The translations under genes and the position numbers were made by a program. From a virus: DNA of 20,723 nt. Of the stretch, positions 539-19,396 are shown piece by piece. Under the pieces are notes generated by a model that had not been told where the DNA came from, did not search any database, and saw only the letters and a list, made by a program, of their open reading frames with translations. The stretch's first letter is position 1, and each line of letters starts with the position of its first letter. The stretch is from positions 1 through 20,723 of IMG/VR virus record IMGVR_UViG_3300042691_025412; one strand, given 5' to 3'.

Positions 539-1195
539 TTAAGAATTTTTTTCGGAGGCATATTTTACTCCCATAATTGTGCCGACAATACTAAAAGCAT
601 TGGTTAGTAGTATTCCTATTATATTACTCCATGTCGAACCAATAACACTAGTATCAACACCAGCAAATAACGCAATTAAAAACATAAGTGTGGTTGTTAC
701 ACCAACACCCATAATAACCCAAAGAGCTACTTTAACTATTGTCCCAATTAATTCGAATTGAGATTTCTTTTGAATTAACTCTAAATCATTTTCAGCGTTG
801 GCCTTTGCGTTTTCAGCTTCAGCTCTTGCTGTCATAGCCTCAATCATTGATTTCTCAGCTTTGTCCTTGGATGCCTCTGCTTCTTCTTTTGCGTTTTCAG
901 CTTCAACAATAGCAACTCTATTAAGTTCTAGTGTTTCGAGTAGTTCACCATTAATTCGTTCATTTTCAGTTTTCCAATCGGTTAACTCTTTGTTTTGTTT
1001 TTGAATTTGTTTGGTTATTTCTAAACGTTTTTTCCTGGTTGCGTTGTCTTTTTCTATAGATTCATTAACATAATTTTGAAATTCAACATCACCATCAACA
1101 TCAATAACTTTCAATATATTACCTTCTAAAGATATTTTTTTTGTTTGATGGAGTTGGATTAATTGTTCTTTTGTTTTTTTATCTATTTTAATCAT
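539..1195 (-). CDS. Coiled-coil protein with two C-terminal membrane helices
   Basis: The protein has 218 residues. Residues about 50-150 form a long charged heptad-like region rich in Ala, Glu and Lys with repeated AEAENAK-type units, typical of a coiled coil. Two hydrophobic stretches follow at about 152-178 (TIVKVALWVIMGVGVTTTLMFLIALFA) and 188-210, then a short polar tail. It therefore looks like a C-terminally anchored membrane protein with a large coiled coil on one side. Its ATG overlaps the stop of the response regulator by one base (TAATG), implying translational coupling and a place in the same operon as the regulator and histidine kinase. No enzymatic motif is visible. Function unknown; acting as the output partner of the receiver is an inference from gene order. 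Confidence 0.85.
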   Translation of the reverse strand: MIKIDKKTKEQLIQLHQTKKISLEGNILKVIDVDGDVEFQNYVNESIEKDNATRKKRLEITKQIQKQNKELTDWKTENERINGELLETLELNRVAIVEAENAKEEAEASKDKAEKSMIEAMTARAEAENAKANAENDLELIQKKSQFELIGTIVKVALWVIMGVGVTTTLMFLIALFAGVDTSVIGSTWSNIIGILLTNAFSIVGTIMGVKYASEKNS

Positions 1196-1632
1196 TATCT
1201 ATAGATTTTAAATGGGTTGGTTTTGTTTTTGTAACCTTCGTAATCTTTTCTAAACTCTTCAAGTCTAGGTTCAATTTCATCTGATTTGATAATCCAAAAT
1301 TGTGCACCAGCTTGAATTGCTTTTGCTTGCTCGTTGGCTTCATCACTAGATGAAATAATACCGATAACAACATTGTTACCGTAATCAAAATTTATTTTTC
1401 TAATCAATTCAATACCATCATAAGATGAACCAATTATATTTAAGTCAACAAACACACATTCTGGTTTGTTTGAAGTATCAGCGTTTTCGTTCCAATCTTT
1501 GAACATGGTTTCAGCTGTGTCAGCACTATCTAAACTTTCTAAGGAAAGCGTTATGTCTAAAAGACTACATGCGTCTTCAAATACTAAGTGGAATAAATCT
1601 TCATCATCCACTAATAAAATAGAGTTAATCAT
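1195..1632 (-). CDS. Stand-alone response-regulator receiver domain (CheY-like)
   Basis: The 145-residue protein is essentially one receiver (REC) domain. The acidic pocket is D9-D10 (ILLVDDED), the phospho-acceptor is D63 (CVFVDLN), the conserved Ser/Thr switch lies in the run S94-S96 (GIISSS) and the conserved lysine is K116 (FWIIKSD). No DNA-binding or enzymatic output domain follows, so it probably acts by protein-protein contact, as CheY or Spo0F do. It lies 26 bases downstream of the histidine kinase and overlaps the next gene, for a coiled-coil membrane protein, by one base. A leader of AAAAAC repeats (1633-1660) precedes the ATG, as in other genes here. The receiver assignment is firm; the cognate partners are inferred from the operon. 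Confidence 0.92.
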   Translation of the reverse strand: MINSILLVDDEDLFHLVFEDACSLLDITLSLESLDSADTAETMFKDWNENADTSNKPECVFVDLNIIGSSYDGIELIRKINFDYGNNVVIGIISSSDEANEQAKAIQAGAQFWIIKSDEIEPRLEEFRKDYEGYKNKTNPFKIYR

Positions 1633-1658
1633 TTTTGTTTTTGTTTTTGTTTTTTTGT

Positions 1659-2894
1659 TTATTTTATTTTTATTCTTAATTTTGTACCTTGTTCTAACTT
1701 TTCAGCTGTGATATCAAAACCATGTTCTTTTAAAATCGCTTTACATATATTAAGTCCTAACCCAGTACCTGTTTCTTTTTGACCTTCTTTTCTAACGTAA
1801 GGTTTTGAAAGTTCATCAAAATCTTTCTGGTCAATACCCCTACCATTATCTTCAATACAAATATAACCATCTTCACTGTAAATTTTAACAAGTTTGCTTT
1901 TACTATCGTTGTATTTTAAACCATTTCTAATTAAATTATCAATAGATGTACACATCAAAGATTCATTGACTTCGATTGTAGGTAAATTATCATCTAAATA
2001 TACTTGTGATTTGTAAGCGGTGGAAGTTAAATAATCATCCATTATTTTTTGGATACTACATTCAGTTTTACTTAAAACCACATCAGTTTTTACCAAGTTG
2101 GTAAATTCATACACACCTTTATAAACTTTTTGGGTGTGTTTCAAACCTTCTTTTATCATTTTTAAAGGTGCTTCTAATTTTGCCGATTCTATGATTTCTG
2201 GGGTTAATCTTCTTTCTAAAGATGATACACCTCTAGGTATGTATGTATTAATACCAGAATGCATATCATGTCTTAATATCTTGGCAGCATGTTCTAGGTA
2301 TGTGTTTTTCTTGTCAATCTCCAATTGTTGGTTAATTTTTTCGGTAATATCAGTAGCTATTTTCATTACTCTGTAAGATTTACCGTTATTCCCAAAGATA
2401 GGGTTGTATGTCGCTTGAAGATAAATTAAATCACCATTTTTTTTCTTTCTGATAATTTCACCAGTAAAAAATTCACCTTTTTTAAGTGTTTCCCAAAAGT
2501 GTTCATATTCTTTAGTGTCTTTTACACCATCTTGAACAAATAAACTGTGATGCTTCCCTACAATTTCATCTTGATTTTCGTACCCTAATGTATTTAAAAA
2601 TAATTCATTTGCAAAAATTATCGTACCATCTAAATTAAACTCAATAACCGCATTCGATTTATTAATCGCGTCCATTCTATTGGAAAATTCATTTTCTTTG
2701 CGTCTTATTTTATTGTTAAAACCTTTTATGAAAAAATAAAAAGGTATGAAAAAAGTTATAAAACATATTAATTCAAAATAACCTAAAAATTTTGAATATT
2801 GAATTACATTTAAAAGTAATAAAGACTGTACGGTAAAAGATGCTAAAAAAATTAATATAGAAATTATTAGCGAAACTTTATATTTTGATATCAT
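1659..2894 (-). CDS. Membrane PAS-domain sensor histidine kinase
   Basis: The 411-residue protein from the ATG at 2894 has two membrane helices (about 7-30 and 37-57) with almost no external loop. A PAS/PAC domain follows at about 79-185, of the kind seen in chemoreceptors (KHHSLF, then TGEIIRKKKNGD, then YNPI and ATDITEK). Next is a HisKA-like dimerisation helix with probable phospho-acceptor H209 (ILRHDMHSG). The ATPase domain has an N box (N320, N324), a G1 box (D349-N-G-R-G) and a G2 box (G376-T-G-L-G). The frame is open to 2945, but that longer start would translate through a strong hairpin (2905-2947) and adds an unlikely polar prefix, so the inner start is preferred. With no periplasmic sensor loop, the input is probably cytoplasmic (redox, energy or small ligand). 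Complete two-component kinases are rare in phages. Confidence 0.92.
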   Translation of the reverse strand: MISKYKVSLIISILIFLASFTVQSLLLLNVIQYSKFLGYFELICFITFFIPFYFFIKGFNNKIRRKENEFSNRMDAINKSNAVIEFNLDGTIIFANELFLNTLGYENQDEIVGKHHSLFVQDGVKDTKEYEHFWETLKKGEFFTGEIIRKKKNGDLIYLQATYNPIFGNNGKSYRVMKIATDITEKINQQLEIDKKNTYLEHAAKILRHDMHSGINTYIPRGVSSLERRLTPEIIESAKLEAPLKMIKEGLKHTQKVYKGVYEFTNLVKTDVVLSKTECSIQKIMDDYLTSTAYKSQVYLDDNLPTIEVNESLMCTSIDNLIRNGLKYNDSKSKLVKIYSEDGYICIEDNGRGIDQKDFDELSKPYVRKEGQKETGTGLGLNICKAILKEHGFDITAEKLEQGTKLRIKIK

Positions 2895-2904
2895 ATTTAA
2901 AAAC

Positions 2905-2947
2905 AAATGTGGGCTATTACATTCTAAAATATAAATAGTCCACATTT
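2905..2947. terminator. Strong hairpin between the 2H-like gene and the kinase, probable terminator
   Basis: AAATGTGGGCTATT (2905-2918) pairs with AATAGTCCACATTT (2934-2947), giving a 14-bp stem with one G-T wobble and a 15-base loop, T-rich on both exits. It follows the stop of the 178-residue gene (2978) and precedes the kinase start (2894). It could be a terminator, or a leader structure controlling the kinase operon. Confidence 0.65.
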
Positions 2948-2977: not shown

Positions 2978-3514
2978 TTAAGTTAAAATAAACCCTTTTA
3001 TCATCATATTATGTAGGTATTCCGAGTGTTCTATGTTCTTTTCATTAGCGTACCCAAGGCTCATATGCATCCCAAAAAATGGTCTACCTAAACCTATTTC
3101 ACTTCTGATGGCTTGTAACCCATCTCGTTCTTCGTTTGGGATATTCAACCACCAGCTTCTACCGTCACTTCTTGGGTTTAAATCCAACACTATTTCAATT
3201 TTCTTACCGTGCCATTTCTTCTTAGCAGCTTCCCACGCATTTAGAGCTTCTTCCTCGGACTTTTCCCCGTTTTGAGTCAAATCCTTCATGCTGTCGTTAA
3301 TAAACGAAATGTGGGCCCCTCTAAGAGGTTTATTCAATACCAAGTTGTATCTCTTTTTGATGAACCATGCGTAGTATTCGCAAATCTCTCCATCTATAAG
3401 AACCATAGCCATTTTTTTCCATGCGGCTTGATTCATGTGTTTTTTTGTCTTGTCTTCTGGCTCAAACTCAATCTTGCCAGTAAGTGTTATTCTATTCTTC
3501 ACGTCGTAATCCAA
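2978..3514 (-). CDS. Putative 2H-phosphoesterase-like protein
   Basis: The 178-residue protein carries two H-x-S motifs about 80 residues apart: H68-I-S70 in RGAHISFIND and H150-M-S152 in GMHMSLGYAN. Paired H-x-(S/T) motifs, each in a beta-strand and separated by 70-90 residues, define the 2H phosphoesterase superfamily (LigT, cyclic phosphodiesterases, phage Acb1). The spacing and the hydrophobic residues around them fit, but overall similarity cannot be tested here. Known members open 2',3'-cyclic or 2',5'-linked phosphates, and phage Acb1 destroys CBASS signal nucleotides. The start is unusual: the longest frame begins at TTG (3514), overlapping the upstream gene by 23 bases; a GTG at 3502 is an alternative. 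It is followed by a strong hairpin. The enzyme call is tentative. Confidence 0.5.
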   Translation of the reverse strand: MDYDVKNRITLTGKIEFEPEDKTKKHMNQAAWKKMAMVLIDGEICEYYAWFIKKRYNLVLNKPLRGAHISFINDSMKDLTQNGEKSEEEALNAWEAAKKKWHGKKIEIVLDLNPRSDGRSWWLNIPNEERDGLQAIRSEIGLGRPFFGMHMSLGYANEKNIEHSEYLHNMMIKGFILT

Positions 3515-3887
3515 ATAAATTGTTAAGTATTTCTGTATCTATCTCATGCGCGATTTCATGAGACAACAATGCTGTTAATTCGGCTTCTGCATCTATGTTA
3601 TGGAAGGCTCGTAAATCTTGAGCCATTTCTGGTGTCCATGAGACTCTTAATCCTCTCCAATAAGCTCCACCCCACTCTTTTTCAGGTAACCCGTTGTTAA
3701 GTGCCCATCTCTTTAAACAATAATCGCAATATTCTTTGGTATATTGGAATATTGTGATTAATGATGAGGTAACGTCACTTCCTTTTACCTCATGTGGGTC
3801 GTGTTTATCCCAAAACCTATTATCTTGTATGATATAGTTTTTGGTAATGTATTTGTTTATTAAATCATATTTATCTCTGGTTGTCAT
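3492..3887 (-). CDS. Short protein with a C-terminal segment resembling T4 major capsid protein gp23
   Basis: The protein has 131 residues from the ATG at 3887. Residues about 78-123 (VSWTPEMAQDLRAFHNIDAE, then an EL...LLS...EIA.EID.EI pattern) closely match the conserved T4-family gp23 capsid block, which reads roughly Y-T-x-E-x-AQDL-x-A-x-H-G-x-DAE-x-EL followed by EI..EIN.E. Residues 1-77 are not recognisable to me, although they contain YCDYCLKRW, and the protein stops soon after the capsid-like block. A normal capsid protein is over 400 residues, so this is a fragment or a domain reused in a small protein. The HEIAH string falls inside the capsid-like helix and is probably not a metalloprotease site. 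A weak promoter-like TATAATTG lies just before the start. The gp23 likeness is from memory of the family. Confidence 0.6.
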   Translation of the reverse strand: MTTRDKYDLINKYITKNYIIQDNRFWDKHDPHEVKGSDVTSSLITIFQYTKEYCDYCLKRWALNNGLPEKEWGGAYWRGLRVSWTPEMAQDLRAFHNIDAEAELTALLSHEIAHEIDTEILNNLFGLRREE

Positions 3888-3890
3888 ATA

Positions 3891-3921
3891 CAATTATACG
3901 AAAACCAGAGTAATATGTAAA
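3891..3921 (-). promoter_or_regulatory. Weak candidate promoter of the same class
   Basis: On the minus strand TTTA, about 19 bases, then TATAATTG (3898-3891) is one mismatch per box from the TTTG / TAnnTTTG pattern seen elsewhere in the window. It is only a few bases from the start codon at 3887, so transcripts would be nearly leaderless. Confidence 0.3.
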
Positions 3922-3923
3922 CG

Positions 3924-4646
3924 TTACGCTAACCTAAGTGGTTTCAAAAACTCTCTAAGAAAAGCATTTTCTGCTCCACCAATCTTTTCAACCCATTTAT
4001 GGTAATTATTCACGTTACGTTCTTCTAATTCAATAATTGCTTTTTTGGATGGTTTGCGAACACCATATGGTAGCTTTTCTTCTTGGAAATCTGGATACAT
4101 TTCTCTGTTAAATACTCTTTCATCTACCAAGAACACTACAGCTGTTAATTGGTCACCTAAGTCTGGTTCGTAGAACTCAGATGTCAACAAACCTAGGTTA
4201 TTAAGGGTTGCTAAATGTTGATTAAGACTTCCTAATTTATCTGGGGTGTTGTTTGTCGTACCACCATTAAGAATGATAAATGTTTTATCTTTTTGAGCCC
4301 ATTTGTTGTAAATAGCTTCATGTGGTGGTAAGTTTCTAACGTTTTGTTGATACTCTACCACAGCGTGTCCAAATTGTATTCCTTGTTGAATTGGACTTAA
4401 GTTGTAAGGTACAAGTCCATACATTCTGTATTCCAAATACATTTCAGTTTTTCTTGGCATCGAGTTGGCTTTTACTTTACATTGTGACAATGCTTCAAGA
4501 AATTCATCCTTCGGCATTGTTGGAAATGTAAAATAATGTTTTTCTTTCGACCCATACCACTCTAGTGGCCATTCATTAAGGTTCAAGACCCTAATGTTAA
4601 GTTCTAAACACCATTGATAAGGTGTTTTTAATTCCATTTGTTCCAT
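3924..4646 (-). CDS. PTH2-like (peptidyl-tRNA hydrolase II fold) phage protein
   Basis: The protein has 240 residues. Its central part recalls the PTH2 fold: a first strand YGLVPYNLSPIQQGIQFGHA with helix VVEYQQ (compare the x-Q-x-x-HA helix after the first strand in PTH2), then a strand FIILNGG, a helix with LGSLNQHLATLNNLGLL, and a strand pair EFYEPDLGDQLTAVVFLVDE, which corresponds to the PTH2 D-x-G-x-T-x-I region. PTH2 enzymes release peptides from tRNA. This protein is longer than classical PTH2 (about 120 residues), with roughly 70-residue extensions on both sides, so the chemistry may differ. It follows the PARP and a small protein by 11 bases or less and precedes the gp23-like gene. 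The fold match is moderate and activity is not established. Confidence 0.5.
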   Translation of the reverse strand: MEQMELKTPYQWCLELNIRVLNLNEWPLEWYGSKEKHYFTFPTMPKDEFLEALSQCKVKANSMPRKTEMYLEYRMYGLVPYNLSPIQQGIQFGHAVVEYQQNVRNLPPHEAIYNKWAQKDKTFIILNGGTTNNTPDKLGSLNQHLATLNNLGLLTSEFYEPDLGDQLTAVVFLVDERVFNREMYPDFQEEKLPYGVRKPSKKAIIELEERNVNNYHKWVEKIGGAENAFLREFLKPLRLA

Positions 4647-4657
4647 TTTCTTTTATT

Positions 4658-4867
4658 TTACCAACTATCGTAGTCGGTTATATCTTTTTTAACTTCAAAC
4701 AATCCTTTTTCTTTGCTTTTTATAATAACTTCAATGTTATCACCAATACCAGTTGGTGTAAAGCAAAACGTTCTTGTGTAGTGAGTCTCATGACCGTATA
4801 ATGTTTTAACAGCGTCTTCAACTTCTTTTAAGTTTTGTTTTTCTTTTTCGTTTAAACTAAAATCCAT
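4658..4867 (-). CDS. Small protein translationally coupled to the PARP gene
   Basis: This is a 69-residue protein starting MDFSLNEKEKQNLKEVEDAV. The frame is open to 4903, but the ATG at 4867-4865 overlaps the stop of the PARP gene as TAATG, the same junction used at four other places in this window, so that start is preferred. The N-terminal half looks helical and the C-terminal half appears to form short beta strands (TRTFCFTPTGIGDNIEVIIKS, then FEVKKDI). No family is recognised. Tight coupling suggests it is made with the PARP and may modulate or accompany it. Inference only. Confidence 0.7.
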   Translation of the reverse strand: MDFSLNEKEKQNLKEVEDAVKTLYGHETHYTRTFCFTPTGIGDNIEVIIKSKEKGLFEVKKDITDYDSW

Positions 4868-6156
4868 TAGTGTTCCATTTGTATTAAGTGAGAAATTGTA
4901 CATTGTACTGGATTGTAAATGATAAACTCATCATTTCTCAAGTCAGCACCACCGTGAGCGTATACGCTATCAAAACCATCCTTTTGGATGTTAGAGTAAC
5001 TCAAACTATAACACGATGAATCATGTTTGTGAATGTGTTTCTCGTTTCCTAAATGTACATCGAACAAAGCCAAGAAACCTACTTGAGAGTTCCCTCTAGT
5101 CCAATGAGAACCTGACAGAGAACTATACCCTAACGATTTTTGACTCTTGTTTGCAAAATATACACCGTCACCGAACATTGAACCAGTATACACCGCGCCA
5201 GAAGGTCTAATCATAAGACCAGTCTGAATAATGTTAAACCAGTTCTCGTTACGTGAACCATGCCAGTAAAGTCTTTTCTTTTTAACTTTGGCAGTTTTAA
5301 AGTGAGCATCAAACTTAGCTTGTGTAGCCAAGTTAACCACTTTGAAAATCTTTTTAGCTTTATTGGCGTTATCACCCAATAATTTTGTGATAAGATTAAG
5401 TGTTTCAGTATCTTTCTCAACTTCAACTTTAAGACCCATTTGAGTAAGAATGTCGATGTCTGACATTTCTTTACCAGTGGTTTCAACAGTTTGTTTTTGT
5501 TGTTTGATAAGTTTAACCTGACCAGCCATTGTGTCTAACGCGCTTTGTTCCTCACCTAACAACCTTTGAGCTTTCTCTAATTCAACATCATCACCCAACC
5601 CTTGAACCAAGTGGTTTTTAACGTTGTCCATCTTTCTTGGTATGATTGTGTAAAGCTTCAACAACTCGTTGTTAACGTCTTTAAGGTCACCACCAACTTT
5701 CAACATCGCAGTTACTCTAGATAGAACTTCTTGAGCTGATTCCACTTGTTGTTCAGAAACCGCATCTTGCGTTACTTTATAGTTTTTCTGGATAGACTTA
5801 TTCGCGTATGCCATAAGGTCTTGAACCAATTTCTTAACCATCGCGTCTTTGATTGCTTCAACGGTGTTATTTTTTGATGCAGCGTTAGAATCATCCACTA
5901 CTGGCTCAGCCAACAACTCAGTTACATCAGTGTAACCTTTTGTTGATGAAGTTTTCTCTCGTAATATTTTATCCCACTCGTTTTTACTCTTAAACACGGT
6001 AGCCATGTTTTTGCCCACTCTACCATACTCACATTTGATTCTACCATCTGAAAGTTCTTCCATAATGTAGACTTTGTTGCTATTGTCTGTTTTACCGTTG
6101 TCTACCGACACGTGAATCAGTTTAGCGTATCTTAATCCGTTTTCTTTTGTAATCAT
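4867..6156 (-). CDS. WGR-domain poly(ADP-ribose) polymerase-like ADP-ribosyltransferase
   Basis: The protein has 429 residues. The N-terminal WGR-like domain spans about 8-85 (EYGRVGKNM in place of WGR-x-G). A helical PARP regulatory domain lies at about 100-275. The ART catalytic domain spans about 290-429 and has the full H-Y-E triad: H299 in LYWHGSRNENW, Y333 in GDGVYFANKSQKSLGY, and E410 in NDEFIIYN. S341 and Y344 match the nicotinamide-contacting Ser and Tyr of PARP1. It should transfer ADP-ribose from NAD+ to protein or nucleic acid; a Glu third residue permits chain elongation in PARP1. The ATG at 6156 is chosen over an upstream one because the promoter -7 box (6173-6180) would leave that start untranscribed. 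It is followed by a coupled 69-residue gene. The family call is strong; the target is unknown. Confidence 0.9.
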   Translation of the reverse strand: MITKENGLRYAKLIHVSVDNGKTDNSNKVYIMEELSDGRIKCEYGRVGKNMATVFKSKNEWDKILREKTSSTKGYTDVTELLAEPVVDDSNAASKNNTVEAIKDAMVKKLVQDLMAYANKSIQKNYKVTQDAVSEQQVESAQEVLSRVTAMLKVGGDLKDVNNELLKLYTIIPRKMDNVKNHLVQGLGDDVELEKAQRLLGEEQSALDTMAGQVKLIKQQKQTVETTGKEMSDIDILTQMGLKVEVEKDTETLNLITKLLGDNANKAKKIFKVVNLATQAKFDAHFKTAKVKKKRLYWHGSRNENWFNIIQTGLMIRPSGAVYTGSMFGDGVYFANKSQKSLGYSSLSGSHWTRGNSQVGFLALFDVHLGNEKHIHKHDSSCYSLSYSNIQKDGFDSVYAHGGADLRNDEFIIYNPVQCTISHLIQMEH

Positions 6157-6172
6157 TTTAAATAATTTTTGA

Positions 6173-6204
6173 CAAATATACAATTATAATTTTAAATCAC
6201 CAAA
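6173..6204 (-). promoter_or_regulatory. Bacteroidetes-type promoter for the PARP operon
   Basis: On the minus strand TTTG (6204-6201), 20 bases, then TATATTTG (6180-6173) lies about 17 bases before the PARP start at 6156. Both boxes match the consensus exactly. Confidence 0.7.
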
Positions 6205-8561: not shown

Positions 8562-9614
8562 TTACACCAACTTAAAGAACATATCTCTAACTTTTGAAGA
8601 GATGTATTTGTTCACATCTTTTGGTTCGATTTTGTTATCAGTCATGGTGTCCATTTCCTCTTTTATTACGTCGTTTACTACCCAACGAATTACATCACCC
8701 AATTTTTTGTTTTCGATTGGTTCTTCGTTAGGGAATACGTTTTCAAGCGCTTGGTTGAAACGACTTTCAGTTACAGCATATTCAACAAAGCTTTGGATTG
8801 ACTCTAATTTCTCAGTGTCAACTGCTGCAAGTGTTTTTACTTTTGAACTAGAGTGTTTTTCACCTTTCACTTTGAAACGGTGTACGTTACCGTTTAGGTT
8901 AGTTGACCATACGATACCTTCACCGATTCCAGAGAACCCAAATGCTTTGGCAACTGGACATTCTTCTTCAACAGCTAGTGTAAGTTCAGACAATTTGTTT
9001 TGAACCAACTGTGGCATGTTAAAGTCAATATCCATTGTCCATGTTTGGAAATCTTCAATATTGTAAATGTTATCCTCAGGGCTTTTTAAATAATGTGAAG
9101 GAATCCAATAAGCTGGTTTTTGTCTAGCTTCTTCTTCGGTTTGTGTAATCGGAGTTACTTTAACACCAAAGATAAAGAATGATTTTGGTAGGTTTGAAAT
9201 ACCAACACCCTTTTGGATGTTACCACCAGCCCATTCACCGTAGATTGTGACGATATTGTGACGAACATCGAACATACCTAACGAATCAATTTGACTAGCA
9301 AATTTTTTAAAAGCTTCTTTATGTGATTCAACAAAGAAAGCAAAACCAGCATTGTCTTTTTCTGGCGTGATAATGTTTTCACGAGATTGTACCCAATACT
9401 CGCTAGTGTTATCATAACCGTATTTGAAAGAAACACCAGCGTTGGTTCCATGAAGTTTTACAGTACCTTTGAATGTAAGTGTTGGTTTTGGTTTAGTGGT
9501 GTCATAAATAGCGTCACCATTCTCGTCTAAACCTACGAAATTGTATTGTCTAAGGATAGTAGCTACTACGCTTCTGAATTGTTCGATAGACGGAAATTTA
9601 ATCATTTTTTTCAT
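8562..9614 (-). CDS. RNA ligase, Rnl2 family
   Basis: The 350-residue protein carries the nucleotidyltransferase motifs of the Rnl2 (T4 RNA ligase 2) family in order: motif I K53-LHGTN (lysine to be adenylated), motif Ia region QSREN, motif III E127 in IYGEWAGG, motif IV E232 in GEGIVW, and motif V K248-V-K250 in RFKVKG. A helical C-terminal domain (about 260-350) follows, as in Rnl2, where it is needed for sealing nicked double-stranded RNA. It would use ATP to seal 3'-OH/5'-phosphate RNA ends. Two in-frame ATGs lie close together (9614 and 9605). A terminator lies upstream (for the beta-barrel gene) and another downstream, so the gene is probably a separate unit. A second, Rnl1-type ligase lies about 4 kb away. 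Confidence 0.92.
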   Translation of the reverse strand: MKKMIKFPSIEQFRSVVATILRQYNFVGLDENGDAIYDTTKPKPTLTFKGTVKLHGTNAGVSFKYGYDNTSEYWVQSRENIITPEKDNAGFAFFVESHKEAFKKFASQIDSLGMFDVRHNIVTIYGEWAGGNIQKGVGISNLPKSFFIFGVKVTPITQTEEEARQKPAYWIPSHYLKSPEDNIYNIEDFQTWTMDIDFNMPQLVQNKLSELTLAVEEECPVAKAFGFSGIGEGIVWSTNLNGNVHRFKVKGEKHSSSKVKTLAAVDTEKLESIQSFVEYAVTESRFNQALENVFPNEEPIENKKLGDVIRWVVNDVIKEEMDTMTDNKIEPKDVNKYISSKVRDMFFKLV

Positions 9615-10270: not shown

Positions 10271-10495
10271 TTATTTATTGTTTTTTTTATTAACTTCTTC
10301 AATTAACCTTTTTTGGAATTTACCAACACCCATGTCAATGTTGTCATTTAGGATTTGTTTACCCTTGTTAATCATAAATTCTTCTGCTCGTTTTTTAACC
10401 TTATATGCCGCATAAAAAACCGCTATATAAGAACCTAATACCACCAATAGTAAAATAGATAGAATCACTATTAAAATCGTCAACGCAATACTCAT
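10271..10495 (-). CDS. Small single-helix membrane protein
   Basis: The 74-residue protein has one long hydrophobic helix (about 3-31, IALTILIVILSILLLVVLGS onward) followed by a basic, amphipathic cytoplasmic-type tail (YKVKKRAEEF onward). The N-terminus-out or signal-anchor orientation follows from the positive residues after the helix. Its ATG overlaps the DNA ligase stop as TAATG (10493-10497), so it is coupled to the ligase gene. No family is recognised; holin, spanin and membrane-anchor roles are all possible and none is supported by a motif. Confidence 0.75.
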   Translation of the reverse strand: MSIALTILIVILSILLLVVLGSYIAVFYAAYKVKKRAEEFMINKGKQILNDNIDMGVGKFQKRLIEEVNKKNNK

Positions 10496-11895
10496 TACTC
10501 TACCAATAAAGTTTTAATCATGTTCTCAATTTCTTTGATGGACTCCAAGGAATCACATGTGTTTTTGTCATCTCTGAACCCAGCAAAAGAAGGGTATAAC
10601 AATGAATAGTTACCATCAATATCGTTTGATAAACCGTTACATTTGCATTGTATTACAGTACCTAACAAGTTCTCTTGGTTTTCTGTGATATAAGCCATCA
10701 TATCTTCTTTAAGACCTTGTGGTCTTGTTTTAACCAATCCATCAGAAGACTCACAGTTAAGACTAGAGATTACATTCTCATTCTTTGTTCCTTTGGTTCC
10801 GTAGTTGAACCCTACAATACGTAAATCAACATCCATTTCCAATTTCATTTTGATTTGCCATGTTGGTTTTCCGTCTTTCCACTCACCATTCCATGCTTTA
10901 AGGATTGTACCTTCTTCACCAGCAGATAACACTTCTTGGAAGTGGGTCATAGCTTGCGCATAATTGTGAACAATAAGGCTTTCAACGATGTTTACATGTG
11001 TTGGACCAACTCTTTCAATAGCTCTTTCCAAATATGCTAAACGTTCAGCGTATTTAAGTTTTGATGATTTGTTGAAGTATTCATCTACTGTAAGACGGTC
11101 CCATACGGTATAACGAATTTTGTCTAAAGCTTCTTCCATCGAACCATGTTTGTCAGTGAACGCTTTTAGTTTTTTCTCATTTTCTTTATCAGTTCTAGAG
11201 TCTTTCTTACCCAAGATGTCAATAAGTGATGCTATGATACCGTTAGACTCATATCTAGGTGTATCAACCATGGTTAACTCACCGTTAAGAACACAATCTT
11301 CAAATGAAGTTAATTCATCTAAGAACTTGGCACCAGTAAGGATTGTTGGCTCACCTTGACGTGATTCCATTTCAACCTCACCACTTCGAATGACAGCGTT
11401 GCAGTAACGACCATCCATTTTGATTTGTGATATACCTTTACCACCTTTTTCAAAAATTTTACGAGCTTTCTTCTCGTCAAAAGATACAGCACCCATATAA
11501 GGTGTATCTTCAATAAGGTCTTTAAACACTTTGTTCATAAACGTAGTACCCATACCAATTTTACAGTCTTTCTCGATAATACGCTCAATGATATAGGCAT
11601 CATCTGTTGATACACCACTCAATAACACTACAAGCCAGTTTATAGCTTCAGACCCAGTGAATTCTCTGTTGTAAATTTTCTCTAACCCAGCTAAAGCCCA
11701 TTCAAGTGTTTCACCACCATCGTTGTCTGGCGTGTATTCTGGAACACGTTTTAGATAGAATTTAACTCGTTTAGAGTTGGCCAAATATAGCACTCTTTTT
11801 AAAAGTTCATTATCTGAGTATTTTCTAAGGATATCAACCTTAGCGTTGTTACCGCTCTCAGCAGCAATCTCGTCAAAAATTTGTTTGATTATCAT
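10495..11895 (-). CDS. lig: ATP-dependent DNA ligase, T4 gp30-like
   Basis: The 466-residue protein has an N-terminal helical DNA-binding region (about 1-130) and an adenylation domain. Motif I is K159-M-D-G-R in QIKMDGR, motif III E206 in LNGELTM, motif IIIa VWDRL (264-268), motif IV EEGTILK (about 327-333) and motif V K349-M-K351 in WQIKMKLEMD. An OB-fold region follows (about 357-466). Length and architecture match T4 DNA ligase (487 residues). It would seal nicks in phage DNA during replication, recombination and repair. It lies one base downstream of a small membrane-protein gene and is coupled to another downstream, sharing the promoter at 12229-12259. Confidence 0.95.
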   Translation of the reverse strand: MIIKQIFDEIAAESGNNAKVDILRKYSDNELLKRVLYLANSKRVKFYLKRVPEYTPDNDGGETLEWALAGLEKIYNREFTGSEAINWLVVLLSGVSTDDAYIIERIIEKDCKIGMGTTFMNKVFKDLIEDTPYMGAVSFDEKKARKIFEKGGKGISQIKMDGRYCNAVIRSGEVEMESRQGEPTILTGAKFLDELTSFEDCVLNGELTMVDTPRYESNGIIASLIDILGKKDSRTDKENEKKLKAFTDKHGSMEEALDKIRYTVWDRLTVDEYFNKSSKLKYAERLAYLERAIERVGPTHVNIVESLIVHNYAQAMTHFQEVLSAGEEGTILKAWNGEWKDGKPTWQIKMKLEMDVDLRIVGFNYGTKGTKNENVISSLNCESSDGLVKTRPQGLKEDMMAYITENQENLLGTVIQCKCNGLSNDIDGNYSLLYPSFAGFRDDKNTCDSLESIKEIENMIKTLLVE

Positions 11896-11896
11896 A

Positions 11897-12208
11897 TTAA
11901 TTATTTAAGATTATTGAGTCACCTACTTTTTTGTTAAGGTATAACTCATGAGTTATTGTATAAACATCTTCACCTTTTTTGGTTTTGATAACCATCTTGT
12001 CATCGGGTAATTTTTTGGTCACTAGACCTTGTGTTGGTTGTGGTCTTTCTGCGGTGACTATAAAGTATACACCAACACATATCAATATTAAAAGGATTGT
12101 TGTAATTAAACAACCCCAACCAGATTTTTTATTATCTGAACTACCAGCGGCTTCAAGCCCTACTTCAGCAATCCCTACTATTAAATCTCCAATTATTTCT
12201 CCAGCCAT
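11897..12208 (-). CDS. Small membrane protein upstream of DNA ligase
   Basis: The protein has 103 residues. A Gly/Ala-rich N-terminal segment (MAGEIIGDLIVGIAEVGLEA) precedes one membrane helix (about 32-52, CLITTILLILICVGVYFIV). The C-terminal region has strand-like blocks (VTKKLPDDKMVIKT, then EDVYTITHELYLNKKVGDSI) that could form a small beta domain. It is the first gene after a consensus promoter and one base from the ligase start, so ligase is read from the same message. No function can be assigned. Confidence 0.78.
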   Translation of the reverse strand: MAGEIIGDLIVGIAEVGLEAAGSSDNKKSGWGCLITTILLILICVGVYFIVTAERPQPTQGLVTKKLPDDKMVIKTKKGEDVYTITHELYLNKKVGDSIILNN

Positions 12209-13256: not shown

Positions 13257-13284
13257 ATGCTCTAACCCATAAGGATTAGAGCAT
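13257..13284 (-). terminator. Hairpin at the end of the Rnl1-type ligase gene
   Basis: ATGCTCTAA (13257-13265) pairs with TTAGAGCAT (13276-13284), plus two C-G pairs inside. The 9-bp stem includes the stop codon of the ligase. The T-tract on the minus strand is poor, so termination may be weak or the hairpin may protect the mRNA end. Confidence 0.5.
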
Positions 13285-14412
13285 TTTGTATAACAATTTG
13301 TCATCGTAGTTAACTATGAAGTCTTCTACTGAATCAACTTTACCATCAACCAACCCAAAATACAATCCAGTGAATTGTTTTAAGTCGTGTTTACCACAAA
13401 CTTCAAAGACAGCCGCAGCGTATCTTTTCTTTTCTTCTTTGGTTATGTTTCTTGGTTTACGAGCACTTAACTCAACCCACATATCATTTAACTTTACAGT
13501 CAATTTATCGTAGTTTTCTTTAAGTCTTAACAATTCGTCTTTTCTTTCTGGGAAAGTTGAGGCGAATTCTTCTATCTCGTTAGATTTAACGATAGTTATG
13601 ATATTGTGTTCAGCAGTTTTACCTTTCAAGTGGTGAACCGCAACATAAGCTGGGTTTTTTATCTTGATACGGTTGAAATTAGCGTCTACAACAACGTAAC
13701 CTTCTTCTGACCATGGCATACCTTCAAATGTACGTAACAATGCACCTACATCCTTAGCATTCAAGTCAAACGATTTTACCAATGGTATGCTTAATGACAC
13801 AGAGGTCATTTCTAAAGCTTTTCCAGATAATTCAACTAGTGTTTCTCTGTTTCTCACAGTTAACAATGTTGCTGATGATTCACCATGTGGTTTAACCACT
13901 ATGTTATATGGTGTTGTCAACTCAAAAACATATATAAGGTCTTTGTTCAATAAACATTCATTGAATGTGTATTTGTTGTTTACTGTATCCCAAAACAAAT
14001 CGTTAAATGTTGTTCCGTTTTTGTTGTTTACTTCACCTTCACCCTCAGCGGTACCAGTTGTACCAGCAAACCATTTATTAGCGTGCCAATCCCAATATAC
14101 TTGTATAAGGGTACCATCAAGTTTCTCTAACACATTGGCTGTGTTCCAATCTATTTTAGCAGCGTTTCCTTCCTCAGCGTTGAAGAATTTACGGAACGCC
14201 AACGACATAACTTTCCACGTACCTTTTTCAAGAATAAGACCACGACAATCTTGCATCTCTGGCAACCCCATAAGAGTTGGTGATGATAATTGGTCGTATT
14301 TCAAAAGAATCTTCTTATCGTATTCTCTTGATTTAAGTTTAAAGTCATTTATAGCTTTATCTAGCCCATATTTTTTTATATATGTAACGATAGCTAATTC
14401 ATTATTTTTCAT
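13276..14412 (-). CDS. rnlA: RNA ligase, Rnl1 (T4 RnlA) family
   Basis: The 378-residue protein is close in length to T4 Rnl1 (374). Motif I is K97-LDG in LEKLDGTLI (T4 K99), followed by motif III E164 in YVFELTTPYN, motif IV EEGYVVVD (236-243) and motif V K250-I-K252 in RIKIKNPAYV. The upstream CRGLIL block (56-61) is also typical. The C-terminal about 110 residues are helical, as in Rnl1, where this domain recognises the tRNA anticodon loop. The enzyme repairs tRNAs cut by host anticodon nucleases such as PrrC. No polynucleotide kinase/phosphatase partner is in the window. The A-rich leader directly before the ATG (14413-14425) acts as the likely ribosome site. Confidence 0.95.
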   Translation of the reverse strand: MKNNELAIVTYIKKYGLDKAINDFKLKSREYDKKILLKYDQLSSPTLMGLPEMQDCRGLILEKGTWKVMSLAFRKFFNAEEGNAAKIDWNTANVLEKLDGTLIQVYWDWHANKWFAGTTGTAEGEGEVNNKNGTTFNDLFWDTVNNKYTFNECLLNKDLIYVFELTTPYNIVVKPHGESSATLLTVRNRETLVELSGKALEMTSVSLSIPLVKSFDLNAKDVGALLRTFEGMPWSEEGYVVVDANFNRIKIKNPAYVAVHHLKGKTAEHNIITIVKSNEIEEFASTFPERKDELLRLKENYDKLTVKLNDMWVELSARKPRNITKEEKKRYAAAVFEVCGKHDLKQFTGLYFGLVDGKVDSVEDFIVNYDDKLLYKML

Positions 14413-14429: not shown

Positions 14430-15275
14430 TTAAAAAATATATCTGATAGTTTCTAAAGGAAAATACTTAGAATATAAATCTTTAAACTCTAATATTAAAC
14501 CATGTTTGAAACGTCTTTCATATCTGATGTTATCAGCAGCATACTGAGAATCTTTAGCTTCTTGTAACTCAGGAATACTAAGTAGATTATTTACTTCTAA
14601 AGTATTTCTTTTAAGTTGAATATTATTGTAAGTTAAAAAGATACATTCTGATTTAAAATCAATACCTTTCAACATTTCAAACAACTCTTTATAATCATCT
14701 AACCAATTTGGATAATATACAATAGGACTAAAGTTAATATGAACTTCCATTTTTTCTTGAAGAATAGGAATCATTGCAATTCTATCAGCGATACTATCCG
14801 TTTTAGGTTCTAAAACATCTGATATTTTTTGAGGCATTAAACTAATTCTTATTCTATGCTTATTTGCAGCTAAATTATAGTCTTGTATATTAAACTTTGT
14901 TGGGTATTTGGTTGCAAAAGTAGTTTTTACTTTGTCATGTGTGTTGAAAAAATCAAATACTTGTTGCCACTCATAGTGTTTACCATGTAAAGGCACATCA
15001 GTACTACACCCTATATCTATACAATAGTAAGTGTCATCAACTTGATTTGACACTTTAGGCCATGGCTTGGATTCAACCCATTTATTAACGGAAGCTAAGA
15101 TTTGCTCTGTGTTTTCGTTGATATAAACCTTGTCAGCATTATATCTACCTACATAACAATATGACTTCATACACCCACCAAGACAACCATATATAAAATT
15201 AGGTGAAATAGCATCACTACTTCTATCATTATCTCTGGTTATTAAGGTTTTAGTTTTTTGTTTCTTAATTTCCAT
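14430..15275 (-). CDS. Radical-SAM protein, spore-photoproduct-lyase-like
   Basis: The 281-residue protein has an N-terminal cluster motif GCLGGCMKSYCYVGRYN with C31, C35 and C40, followed by a TIM-barrel-like pattern (YYCIDIGCSTDVPL, FATKYPT, RIRISLMPQKISDV, VHINFSPIVYY). The CYxxRY after the third cysteine and the later S-P-(I/V) strand recall the SplB/COG1533 group. Spacing is C-x3-C-x4-C rather than the usual C-x3-C-x2-C, confirmed at base level at about 15155-15185. Members cleave SAM with a 4Fe-4S cluster; SplB itself repairs thymine spore photoproduct. Here a DNA-repair or base-modification role is possible but unproven. It lies 17 bases upstream of rnlA and 19 bases downstream of a small acidic gene. 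Confidence 0.72.
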   Translation of the reverse strand: MEIKKQKTKTLITRDNDRSSDAISPNFIYGCLGGCMKSYCYVGRYNADKVYINENTEQILASVNKWVESKPWPKVSNQVDDTYYCIDIGCSTDVPLHGKHYEWQQVFDFFNTHDKVKTTFATKYPTKFNIQDYNLAANKHRIRISLMPQKISDVLEPKTDSIADRIAMIPILQEKMEVHINFSPIVYYPNWLDDYKELFEMLKGIDFKSECIFLTYNNIQLKRNTLEVNNLLSIPELQEAKDSQYAADNIRYERRFKHGLILEFKDLYSKYFPLETIRYIF

Positions 15276-16678: not shown

Positions 16679-19396
16679 ATGGCAGTAGACAAAAAAATTA
16701 GTCAATTACCCGTTGGTTCATTAGATATGGCTAGCATTTTACCAGTTGTTACTAATGGAATTACAACTCAAGTAACTTTCGATACTTTCGCAACTGGAAT
16801 TATCCCTTACGTAAATGGTGGACCTCAAGGACCTGTGGGTCCAGCTGGTGCTGATGGTTTGCCTGGTGCTACAGGTCCTGAAGGTCCTCAAGGTATTCAA
16901 GGACTAACAGGACCTCAAGGTCCTACAGGTCCTACAGGTCCTACAGGTCCTACAGGTCCTGATGGTGCAGTAGGCCCTGCTGGTTTGCTATGGCAAGGTC
17001 TTTGGGATGGCGACACATCTTATAATATTAATGACGCTGTAGGTTTTAGTGGTGCTTCATATTTCTGTTATAACCCTGTTTCAGGTACTGGTAACGATGA
17101 CCCTACTGTTGATACAGCTAGTTGGGCGTTGTTAGCTGCTCAAGGAGCAACAGGTCCTCAAGGCCCTACAGGTCCTACAGGTCCTCAAGGTCCAGCCAAC
17201 ACAGCAACAACAATTTCTTATTTCGTATCTGGTTCAACTGGTATTAGTTCGATAAAAGCAATTAATGCAACTGGTTTGGATGCTACTGGAGATTACGCTT
17301 TTGCTATTGGTAGTCAAACACTTGCTAGCGGTATGTACTCATATGCTGAAGGTTATAAAGCATCTGCTACTACCACGGTAGCACACGCTGAAGGTTGGTC
17401 AACGTTAGCATCTGGTCCTGTATCACACGCTGAAGGTTATTTAACAACAGCTAGTGGTCAAATGTCACACACTGAAGGTTATCAAACTAAAGCTATTGGA
17501 AATTATTCACACGCTGAAGGTAATGGTACAACAGCTAGTGGTAACACATCTCATGCTGAAGGTGGTGGTACAAGAGCTACGGGTATTTATTCACATGCTG
17601 AAGGTTATCTAACAAGAGCACAAGGTCAATATACGCATGCTCAAGGTTATGCTACAATAGCTAATGGGACCTATGCACACGCTGAAGGTGTAGCTACATT
17701 GGCTAATGGTGGTAGTGGTAGTCACGCTGAAGGTAGTAGTACAACAGCTAATGGTAATAGCGCACACGCTGAAGGTCTTCAAACAACAGCAAATGGTGAT
17801 TATAGCCACACTGAAGGTTATCAAACAAAAGCTGATAATAATGGTGCTCACGCTGAAGGATTCTTTACAACAGCATCTGGTTTTACAAGTCACTCTGAAG
17901 GTGCTAACACAACGGCTGGTGGTGATTATAGTCATGCTGAAGGTTCTTTTGCGATTGCTATAGGTCAAGCAAGTCATGCTGAAGGTTCTGTTTCAATTGC
18001 AAATGGTTATGCGTCACATGCTGAAGGTGATAGTACAGCAGCTAATGGTGATTTTAGCCATGCTGAAGGTTTACAAACAACAGCATCTGGTGAAGCTTCA
18101 CACGCTGAAGGGTCAGAAACTCTAGCAAGTGGAAACTATTCACACGCTGAAGGTGGTTTGACAACCGCAAATGGTAATTATTCACATGCTGGTGGTAGTC
18201 AATCTATTGCTAATGGAGAAACTTCATTTGTACATGGTAGTAATTCACTAGCTGTTGGGTCAAGTACAATTGTTTTGGGTAATAATATTACTGGGTTAAC
18301 ATCAAATACAACATATGTTGATAGATTAAATATTAAAAATTTATTTACTGGAACATCTATAAATAATTTAGGCGTAGATGTTAATGGAAATGTAGTTAGT
18401 GGGCAATCATCTTATTGGAGTGCTACTGGTTCTAGTATTTATTATTCAGATAAAGTACTAATCAACGCAAATACTGATACCAGTACCAAGGTATTAACAA
18501 ATAAATTATTTGTTAATGGGGATGTAGGTATAATTGGTTCTTATAGAGTAAAAGGTGTTAATGGTTACTTCTTTGCTGATGATGCTACTGGTATGTATAG
18601 TGATACTGGGAGTAGTATAAAATTTAGGGCCTATAATCCAAATGGTAATCTTTTTGAATTTATACCAATATATCCTAGTTGGACAATTACTGGGGCCATT
18701 CAAAATGTTATTCATCAAAACTATACAATAAACCCAGTTACAGGTGGAACAGCAATTAGAATGATTAATTTAGAACCTACAATAAATCAAACAGGTTCTA
18801 CATCATCAATTATCCATGGTGTTAGAATTGCACCTACATTAACTTCAGCTTTTGATTTTAGAGCAATTGAAGTAACAGGTGGTAAAGTAATAATACCTAA
18901 TGGAAGTTCTGCTAACGAAGCGGTTAATTTAAGTCAAATAACTGGGATGACTGGAACATCTATTAGTGGTGGTACTTTTACTAACCCTAACACTAAGATT
19001 ACTTTACCAAGTAGTACTGGTTCTACTGGTGAAATAGTTTATTTTGGTACAGGTTCAGGGTTATCGGCTGGTTTGATTTATTATTTCAATAGTTCAGGGC
19101 AATGGACAGTAGCTAACGCAACAACCGTTAGTTCATCAAAATATTTAATAGGAATTGCGTTGGGTACATCAATAACAGATGGTATATTGATTAAAGGTTA
19201 CGCTAGATACGCTGTAGGGAATTATTCAAGTGTTGGTACTGGTGATGTTTTATATTTAAGTACTACAAACGGTTTTTTCCAAACAACAGCTCCTTCAAGT
19301 TCAAATGAAGTGGTTAGGGTTATTGGATATTGTATAGATAGCGTTAATGATACTATTTATTTTAACCCTGATAATACTTGGATAGAAATAGTTTAA
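16679..19396 (+). CDS. Tail-fibre/adhesin with collagen-like and YadA-head-like repeats
   Basis: The protein has 905 residues. The N-terminus [20 protein letters not shown] is a typical start of Bacteroidetes phage structural proteins. A collagen-like G-x-y stretch (about 47-102, [11 protein letters not shown]) is followed by a spacer resembling a carbohydrate-binding module ([20 protein letters not shown]), then a second short collagen stretch (about 157-175). Residues about 206-528 hold some 22 copies of a 14-residue unit with consensus xSHAEGxxTTAxGx, as in the left-handed beta-roll heads of YadA-type trimeric adhesins. The rest is beta-rich with a C-terminal domain (from about 760) shared by fibre-type proteins. 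It should form a trimeric rod for host binding, with the collagen part giving flexible stalks. It lies between a small virion gene and a glycosidase-like gene. Confidence 0.9.
16922..16957 (+). repeat. In-frame 9-bp tandem repeat (CCTACAGGT) x4
   Basis: Four perfect copies encode the PTG run of the first collagen-like stalk; diverged CCTxxxGGT units flank them, and shorter runs recur near 17157-17190. Copy change by slippage would lengthen or shorten the stalk without a frameshift. Confidence 0.85.
17294..18262 (+). repeat. About 22 tandem 42-bp units (14-residue SHAEG repeats)
   Basis: The units code for xSHAEGxxTTAxGx with variations (AHAEG, SHTEG, THAQG, SHSEG, and final SHAGG and SFVHG). 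Units are diverged at DNA level, with conserved TCACACGCTGAAGGT cores. One unit around 17696-17730 (GGSGSHAEG) is longer by two residues. Confidence 0.9.

What the first reader, a model, noticed from the sequence alone, without database searches (positions are those of the whole stretch)
4867..6156. Complete phage PARP with WGR, helical regulatory and H-Y-E catalytic domains
The sequence shows H299, Y333, S341, Y344 and E410 in PARP1-like contexts plus an N-terminal WGR-like domain. Phage ADP-ribosyltransferases of the T4 Alt/ModA type are R-S-E enzymes; a PARP1-like architecture controlled by its own host-type promoter is unusual. WGR domains bind DNA ends, so the enzyme may respond to breaks or mark nucleic acids or host proteins early in infection.
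Basis: partly seen in the sequence, partly recalled or inferred. Interest (0 to 1): 0.78.

Follow-up and report, generated by a model that had tools for sequence, protein, structure and literature searches.

The report
Phage PARP in a repair-gene cluster
A giant relative of phage T4 that probably infects Bacteroidota carries an intact enzyme built like the human DNA-break sensor PARP1, switched on by its own host-type promoter beside RNA- and DNA-repair genes; phage PARPs were already known, but this setting suggests what they may be for.

Summary
On the minus strand, 4867-6156 encodes an intact 429-residue protein with H299, Y333, S341, Y344 and E410 exactly as stated. Pfam finds only the catalytic domain. 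Profile searches and an AlphaFold model show the full WGR - helical - catalytic layout of PARP1: best PDB matches are human PARP1 on a DNA break, Z 25.7 over 370 residues. H, Y, E and Y-G-R are invariant in 40 of 40 distinct viral sequences. A Bacteroidota-type promoter precedes the gene in 29 of 40, against at most 1 in shuffles.

It is not a new kind. Phage PARPs have been reported since 2005 (PMC1266365, PMC4245714, PMC7824862); a GenBank record already annotates WGR, regulatory and catalytic domains in a Klebsiella phage PARP; PHROG 23333 is this family. It is not host DNA: nearest chromosomal relatives are 45-46% identical.

New here: in this phage lineage the gene heads an apparent operon and sits among RNA ligase, DNA ligase, RlaP and 2H-phosphoesterase-like genes. 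Best reading: a break-activated ADP-ribosyltransferase acting in phage nucleic-acid repair. Activation, substrate and product are untested.

The parts
4867..6156 (-). PARP gene, 429 aa, WGR - helical - catalytic
5905..6156 (-). WGR-type domain (about residues 1-84); Y44-G45-R46, K68, K73, Y75
   Evidence: PARP3/PARP2 WGR domains; invariant in 40 of 40; Y-G-R aligned with W-G-R of PARP1
5476..5844 (-). helical (PARP_reg-like) domain, about residues 105-227
   Evidence: model; PARP1/2/3 and PARP4 matches; no Pfam match
4870..5367 (-). ART catalytic domain, Pfam PARP residues 264-428, H299-Y333-E410
6173..6204 (-). Bacteroidota-type promoter TTTG-N20-TATATTTG
4658..4903 (-). 81-aa unknown protein overlapping the PARP 3' end
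3924..4646 (-). phrog_3668 'hydrolase' (PTH2-like by my reading), downstream in same apparent operon
   Evidence: 3.6e-17; present at 26 of 28 core-clade loci
3492..3893 (-). small protein with a Gp23-like segment, same apparent operon
2978..3514 (-). phrog_12204, probable 2H phosphoesterase
   Evidence: two invariant histidine motifs; Usb1, plant CPDase, LigT among top folds, weak E
8562..9614 (-). Rnl2-type RNA ligase upstream
   Evidence: 21 of 28 core-clade loci
10495..11895 (-). T4-type ATP-dependent DNA ligase upstream
   Evidence: 19 of 28 core-clade loci
13276..14412 (-). Rnl1-type RNA ligase upstream

Best explanation
It is a true PARP of the DNA-dependent (PARP1/2/3-like) type encoded by a jumbo T4-like phage of a probable Bacteroidota host. 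The likely mechanism: made from its own host-type promoter, it binds broken DNA or RNA ends through the WGR domain; binding loosens the helical domain; the H-Y-E site then uses NAD+ to attach ADP-ribose to itself, nearby repair proteins or the ends themselves, and so marks or protects breaks for the ligases and end-healing enzymes encoded next to it. Shown: gene, predicted fold, conserved catalytic and DNA-contact signature, promoter, purifying selection, conserved repair-gene setting. Inferred: activity, break activation, substrate, poly versus mono product, timing.
For: Best PDB matches are PARP1 WGR-HD-CAT on a DNA break. The WGR profile finds PARP3 and PARP2 WGR domains. The N..K.Y, YGRVG and K..KGY segments correspond to the three coupled WGR segments that PMC5966428 links to DNA-dependent activity in bacterial PARPs, which also mostly carry YGR in place of WGR (passages); key residues of these segments are invariant across 10 divergent phage proteins. 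H/Y/E in 40 of 40. Promoter in 29 of 40, shuffle maximum 1, coding control 0 of 40. In the core clade of 28 loci: phrog_3668 in 26, Rnl2 in 21, DNA ligase in 19, 2H-like in 19, RlaP in 9, same strand as PARP throughout. The 99% twin record encodes Macro, NADAR and NAPRTase, i.e. possible eraser and NAD+ supply.
Against: The core clade is one phage lineage, so its gene order partly reflects descent. Outside it the link is weak: ligase or RlaP near PARP in 5 of 26 viral loci and 3 of 7 phage records, which I judge not clearly above chance. PARG_cat_microb was found in 0 of 30 records, but its control was silent; Macro in only 12 of 30. Residues at the PARP1 acceptor positions Y889 and Y986 (numbers recalled) are not kept, so polymer formation is doubtful. 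No biochemical data.
Confidence: 0.55

Rival explanations
1. A host-takeover enzyme: it ADP-ribosylates host proteins (such as RNA polymerase) early in infection like T4 Alt/ModA, with the WGR domain serving only to place it on DNA.
For: Host-type promoter suggests transcription by host RNA polymerase; PMC7824862 proposes that phage PARPs act like other phage ARTs (passages).
Against: A complete WGR plus helical switch is kept under strong selection, which a constitutive modifier would not need; neighbours are repair genes, not head or portal genes.
Confidence: 0.22
2. An end-capping enzyme: it ADP-ribosylates phosphate ends of DNA or RNA (cleaved tRNA) to block nucleases or tag the end until ligation.
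For: RNA-repair setting: Rnl1, Rnl2, RlaP, 2H-like; PARP2/3 modify DNA ends (recalled).
Against: No direct evidence on substrate; the fold alone does not separate protein from nucleic-acid targets.
Confidence: 0.15
3. A conflict enzyme that drains NAD+ or signals against superinfecting phages.
For: Same phages often carry NAPRTase (20 of 30 records) and Macro or NADAR genes.
Against: NAD+ supply genes argue against net depletion; no toxin-antitoxin or effector neighbour recognised in the scans of the window.
Confidence: 0.06
4. Host DNA, contamination or a dead relic.
For: Bacteroidota chromosomes carry relatives at 45-46% identity.
Against: Relatives at 99% and 90% lie in viral records of 362 and 306 kb with Gp23 capsid genes; dN/dS far below 1; phage clade separate from chromosomes.
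Confidence: 0.02

Closest known systems
PHROG 23333 / Cellulophaga phage phi4:1 PARP (AGO49444.1)
   Same: full-length family match, E 5e-57; 30% identity over 99%; DNA ligase nearby
   Different: different phage type, no Gp23 found; shorter protein; CCA-adding enzyme as neighbour
Klebsiella phage vB_KpM_FBKp34 PARP (QQV91759.1), annotated WGR + regulatory + catalytic
   Same: same three-domain layout and H-Y-E; RlaP-like gene within 6 kb
   Different: 27% identity; Klebsiella host; no Rnl2 or 2H-like neighbour found
Xanthomonas phage XacN1 PARP (BBA65562.1), named in PMC7824862
   Same: jumbo phage with Gp23; WGR-PARP
   Different: 26-27% identity; other neighbours
Bacteroidota chromosomal PARPs (Cytophagales, Saprospiraceae)
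   Same: best 45-46% identity; neighbouring side of the tree
   Different: chromosomal; none of 60 scanned bacterial loci has Rnl2, RlaP or the 2H-like gene nearby
Human PARP1/PARP2/PARP3
   Same: WGR-HD-CAT fold and H-Y-E
   Different: about 23% identity; no zinc fingers or BRCT; Y-G-R instead of W-G-R
T4 Alt/ModA
   Same: phage ADP-ribosyltransferases
   Different: R-S-E class (recalled; also PMC9503650 passages), no WGR or helical domain (recalled)

Membership tests
PARP (H-Y-E clade of ARTs) | PARP catalytic domain | tested here: met
   Pfam PF00644 87 bits vs cut-off 26.7; PDB PARP catalytic domains Z about 25
PARP (H-Y-E clade of ARTs) | H-Y-E triad | tested here: met
   H299, Y333, E410, aligned with PARP1, invariant in 40 of 40
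PARP (H-Y-E clade of ARTs) | NAD+-dependent ADP-ribosyl transfer; polymer formation | not testable with these tools
   no biochemistry
DNA-dependent PARPs (PARP1/2/3 type) | WGR domain | tested here: met
   profile of 8 N-termini finds PARP3 and PARP2 WGR; single-sequence Pfam scan negative; 5 of 10 phage proteins positive
DNA-dependent PARPs (PARP1/2/3 type) | helical regulatory domain before the catalytic domain | tested here: met
   model helices 105-227 within the full-length PARP1 match; Pfam PARP_reg negative for this protein, positive in 4 of 10 phage proteins
DNA-dependent PARPs (PARP1/2/3 type) | activation by DNA ends | not testable with these tools
   only the sequence signature is present
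T4 Alt/ModA (R-S-E) ARTs | R-S-E triad | tested here: not met
   H-Y-E at the aligned positions
PHROG 23333 | full-length family match | tested here: met
   5e-57, residues 17-428 vs profile 9-383 of 383
phage (not host) gene | close homologues in phage genomes, not near-identical to chromosomes | tested here: met
   63 viral loci; best chromosomal identity 46% among 72 loci; phage clade
2H phosphoesterases (neighbour 2978-3514) | two H-x-[ST] motifs in a 2H fold | tested here: inconclusive
   both histidines invariant in 16 of 16; best folds are 2H enzymes but best E 0.012; PDB sequence profile negative

The most novel reading that the evidence does not exclude
A phage-encoded, nucleic-acid-break-activated PARP is a working part of a phage repair operon: it senses DNA or cleaved-RNA ends, writes ADP-ribose that recruits or licenses the co-encoded ligases, RlaP and 2H enzyme, and is reversed by phage Macro/NADAR proteins while phage NAPRTase restores NAD+. 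That would be a viral DNA/RNA damage response built like the eukaryotic one, in a Bacteroidota phage.
Probability: 0.25. Interest if true: 0.78.

Novelty: new member of a known kind. Interest (0 to 1): 0.48.

Why it matters
PARP signalling is best known in eukaryotes. Large phages carry divergent, selected PARPs with the complete break-sensing layout, and in one widespread jumbo-phage lineage the gene lies in a conserved repair cluster. That makes the unknown function of phage PARPs testable. The phage clade is broad (42 viral rows plus one phage record) and neighbours Bacteroidota chromosomal PARPs, which bears on where bacterial PARPs came from.

Tried and rejected
Rejected: host DNA or contamination; Alt/ModA kinship; chance ORF. 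Led nowhere: Pfam WGR and PARP_reg on the single protein; PDB profile for the phrog_3668 neighbour and for the 2H-like neighbour; PARG search with a silent control; E. coli-type promoter scan, 10 sites against 7.1 expected; the short motif TANNTTTG alone over the window, 36 against 33.8 expected. The padloc and ncbifam libraries were not searched.

Rows dropped: seven ORF hits from six truncated or frameshifted loci (L037 twice, L048, L049, L050, L058, L059); L064 holds only a fragment. In one search the start of L011 was probably set too far inside the gene, so the promoter count may be low. In one search, rows under 330 aa and L001, L037, L176 were left out, then 209 were reduced to 121 at 85% identity; the tree is a quick one with SH-aLRT only, and its warnings name L065 and L071 among the long branches. 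One search returned only the best 80 of 145 relatives, so divergent phage PARPs are under-sampled.

Papers: passages only of PMC7824862, PMC9503650, PMC1266365, PMC4245714, PMC5966428, PMC13282480; others seen as search listings. PMC8120803 and PMC6126934 are not held. I found no experimental study of a phage PARP in searches of the open library; this does not cover most subscription journals.

Full report
What is there. The gene is on the minus strand at 4867-6156, 429 residues from an ATG at 6156. Pfam sees only the PARP catalytic domain, E 1.6e-24; PHROG 23333 covers nearly the whole protein, E 5e-57.

Domains. Single-sequence searches miss the WGR and helical domains. Three other tests find them. 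A profile of ten phage proteins aligns with PARP1 from the WGR domain onward, with Y-G-R on W-G-R and H, Y, E on the PARP1 triad. A profile of eight N-termini finds the WGR domains of PARP3 (1.8e-5) and PARP2 (0.0014). An AlphaFold model (26 sequences, mean pLDDT 81.7, pTM 0.75; weak at 85-96 and 318-326) has as best PDB matches human PARP1 on a DNA double-strand break: Foldseek E 3.4e-19 over 493 columns, and VIA-align Z 25.7, rmsd 3.9, 370 aligned, model 2-429 on PARP1 546-1007. PMC5966428 (passages) reports that most bacterial PARPs have Y-G-R with a conserved G-Y further on, and a helical domain that Pfam often misses but models show; this protein fits that description.

Conservation. Of 63 viral loci, 56 gave full-length proteins, 39 of them distinct; with the window 40. 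H299, Y333, Y344, E410, Y44, G45, R46, K73 and Y75 are identical in 40 of 40; S341 in 38. dN and dS are 0.058 and 0.888 against L003, and 0.0059 and 0.273 against L002. So it is an intact, selected gene.

Acceptor side. In the alignments, M327 and K340 match PARP1 M890 and K903, while Y889 and Y986 are not kept (PARP1 numbers recalled). Whether it makes polymer or adds single units is open.

Genome. The window is a 20,723-base linear virus record. A near twin of the PARP (99%) lies in a 362-kb viral record and a 90% relative in a 306-kb record; both carry T4-type Gp23 capsid genes. Nothing in 50,697 phage records matches the window's DNA closely apart from a 39-base collagen-like stretch.

Promoter and operon. 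TTTG-N17-23-TAnnTTTG, which I recall as the Bacteroidota promoter pattern, lies within 80 nt upstream of the gene in 29 of 40 distinct viral sequences; 500 base-composition shuffles gave a mean of 0.08 and a maximum of 1, and coding control segments gave 0 of 40. In the window it stands within 80 nt of 3 of 26 listed ORFs: PARP, 11897-12208 and the Nudix gene. The whole-window count alone (7 against a shuffle mean of 1.3, maximum 8) would not be decisive. PARP is therefore the probable first gene of an operon with an 81-aa protein, the phrog_3668 hydrolase, a Gp23-fragment protein and the 2H-like protein. The promoter also points to a Bacteroidota host; no host assignment was available to check this.

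Neighbourhood. Among 54 dereplicated viral loci, 28 form the window's clade. There phrog_3668 is near PARP in 26, Rnl2 in 21 (always upstream), DNA ligase in 19, the 2H-like protein in 19 (24 of 27 by HMM, window not counted), RlaP in 9. Flanks are 5-6 kb and often cut by contig ends. RlaP is Pfam PF10127, RNA repair. The 2H reading rests on two histidine motifs, the histidines invariant in 16 of 16, and on Usb1, plant CPDase and LigT among the top folds of a good model (pLDDT 91.1), but with weak E-values (0.012 and worse). Outside the clade: ligase or RlaP in 5 of 26 viral loci, 3 of 7 phage records and 1 of 60 bacterial loci. I estimate this as not clearly above chance for large phages, so the repair link is solid for one lineage and only suggestive beyond it.

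NAD+/ADP-ribose genes elsewhere. In 30 records (two of them near-copies, G007 and G008): Macro 12, ADP-ribosylglycohydrolase 6, NAPRTase 20, microbial PARG 0 with a silent control. The twin record has HAD_SAK_2, Macro, NADAR and NAPRTase genes within about 4 kb of each other, far from the PARP on the contig. PMC7824862 and PMC9503650 (passages) describe such NAD+-ADPr and RNA-repair sets in jumbo phages and name PARPs among their ARTs, but the passages I read do not describe a PARP-repair cluster.

Origin. The best chromosomal matches are Bacteroidota, 45-46%. In a 121-row tree the window sits in a 28-row viral clade (SH-aLRT 100) inside a 43-row clade of viral rows and one phage record (87), next to a group of 31 bacterial and 5 viral rows. 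Klebsiella, Xanthomonas and Stenotrophomonas phage PARPs fall far away, so phages have probably acquired or exchanged PARPs more than once; direction is not settled.

Verdict. Real, correctly read, already a known kind: PARP in phages since Aeh1 (PMC1266365) and phi4:1 (PMC4245714), jumbo-phage PARPs (PMC7824862), and the three-domain layout in a GenBank note. What is added here is the full architecture in a probable Bacteroidota jumbo-phage lineage, the conserved host-type promoter, and the repair-gene setting, which together make a testable proposal for what phage PARPs do.

Noticed in passing
3492-3893 (-): 133-aa protein carrying a 48-residue segment like Gp23 major capsid positions 148-195 (7.3e-15), though not a capsid gene; related small proteins at 12 loci next to PARP and further Gp23-fragment ORFs in several jumbo records. 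Unexplained.
   Followed up: partly
1195-2945 (-): Phage-encoded PAS histidine kinase followed by a response-regulator receiver protein; two-component pairs are rare in phages (recalled).
   Followed up: no
14430-15275 (-): Protein matching spore photoproduct lyase (PF20903, 6.8e-13), a DNA-repair radical-SAM family, also in this repair-rich stretch.
   Followed up: no
L225 2468-6494 (twin record G001, 336-345 kb): Cluster of HAD_SAK_2, Macro, NADAR and NAPRTase genes: possible eraser and NAD+ salvage partners of the PARP.
   Followed up: partly
16679-19396 (+): 905-aa collagen-like and YadA-head-like protein with tail-fibre matches and many near-repeats.
   Followed up: no
L115: PARP in a MAG named Thalassovita (Pseudomonadota) groups inside the Bacteroidota clade: transfer or mis-binned contig.
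   Followed up: no
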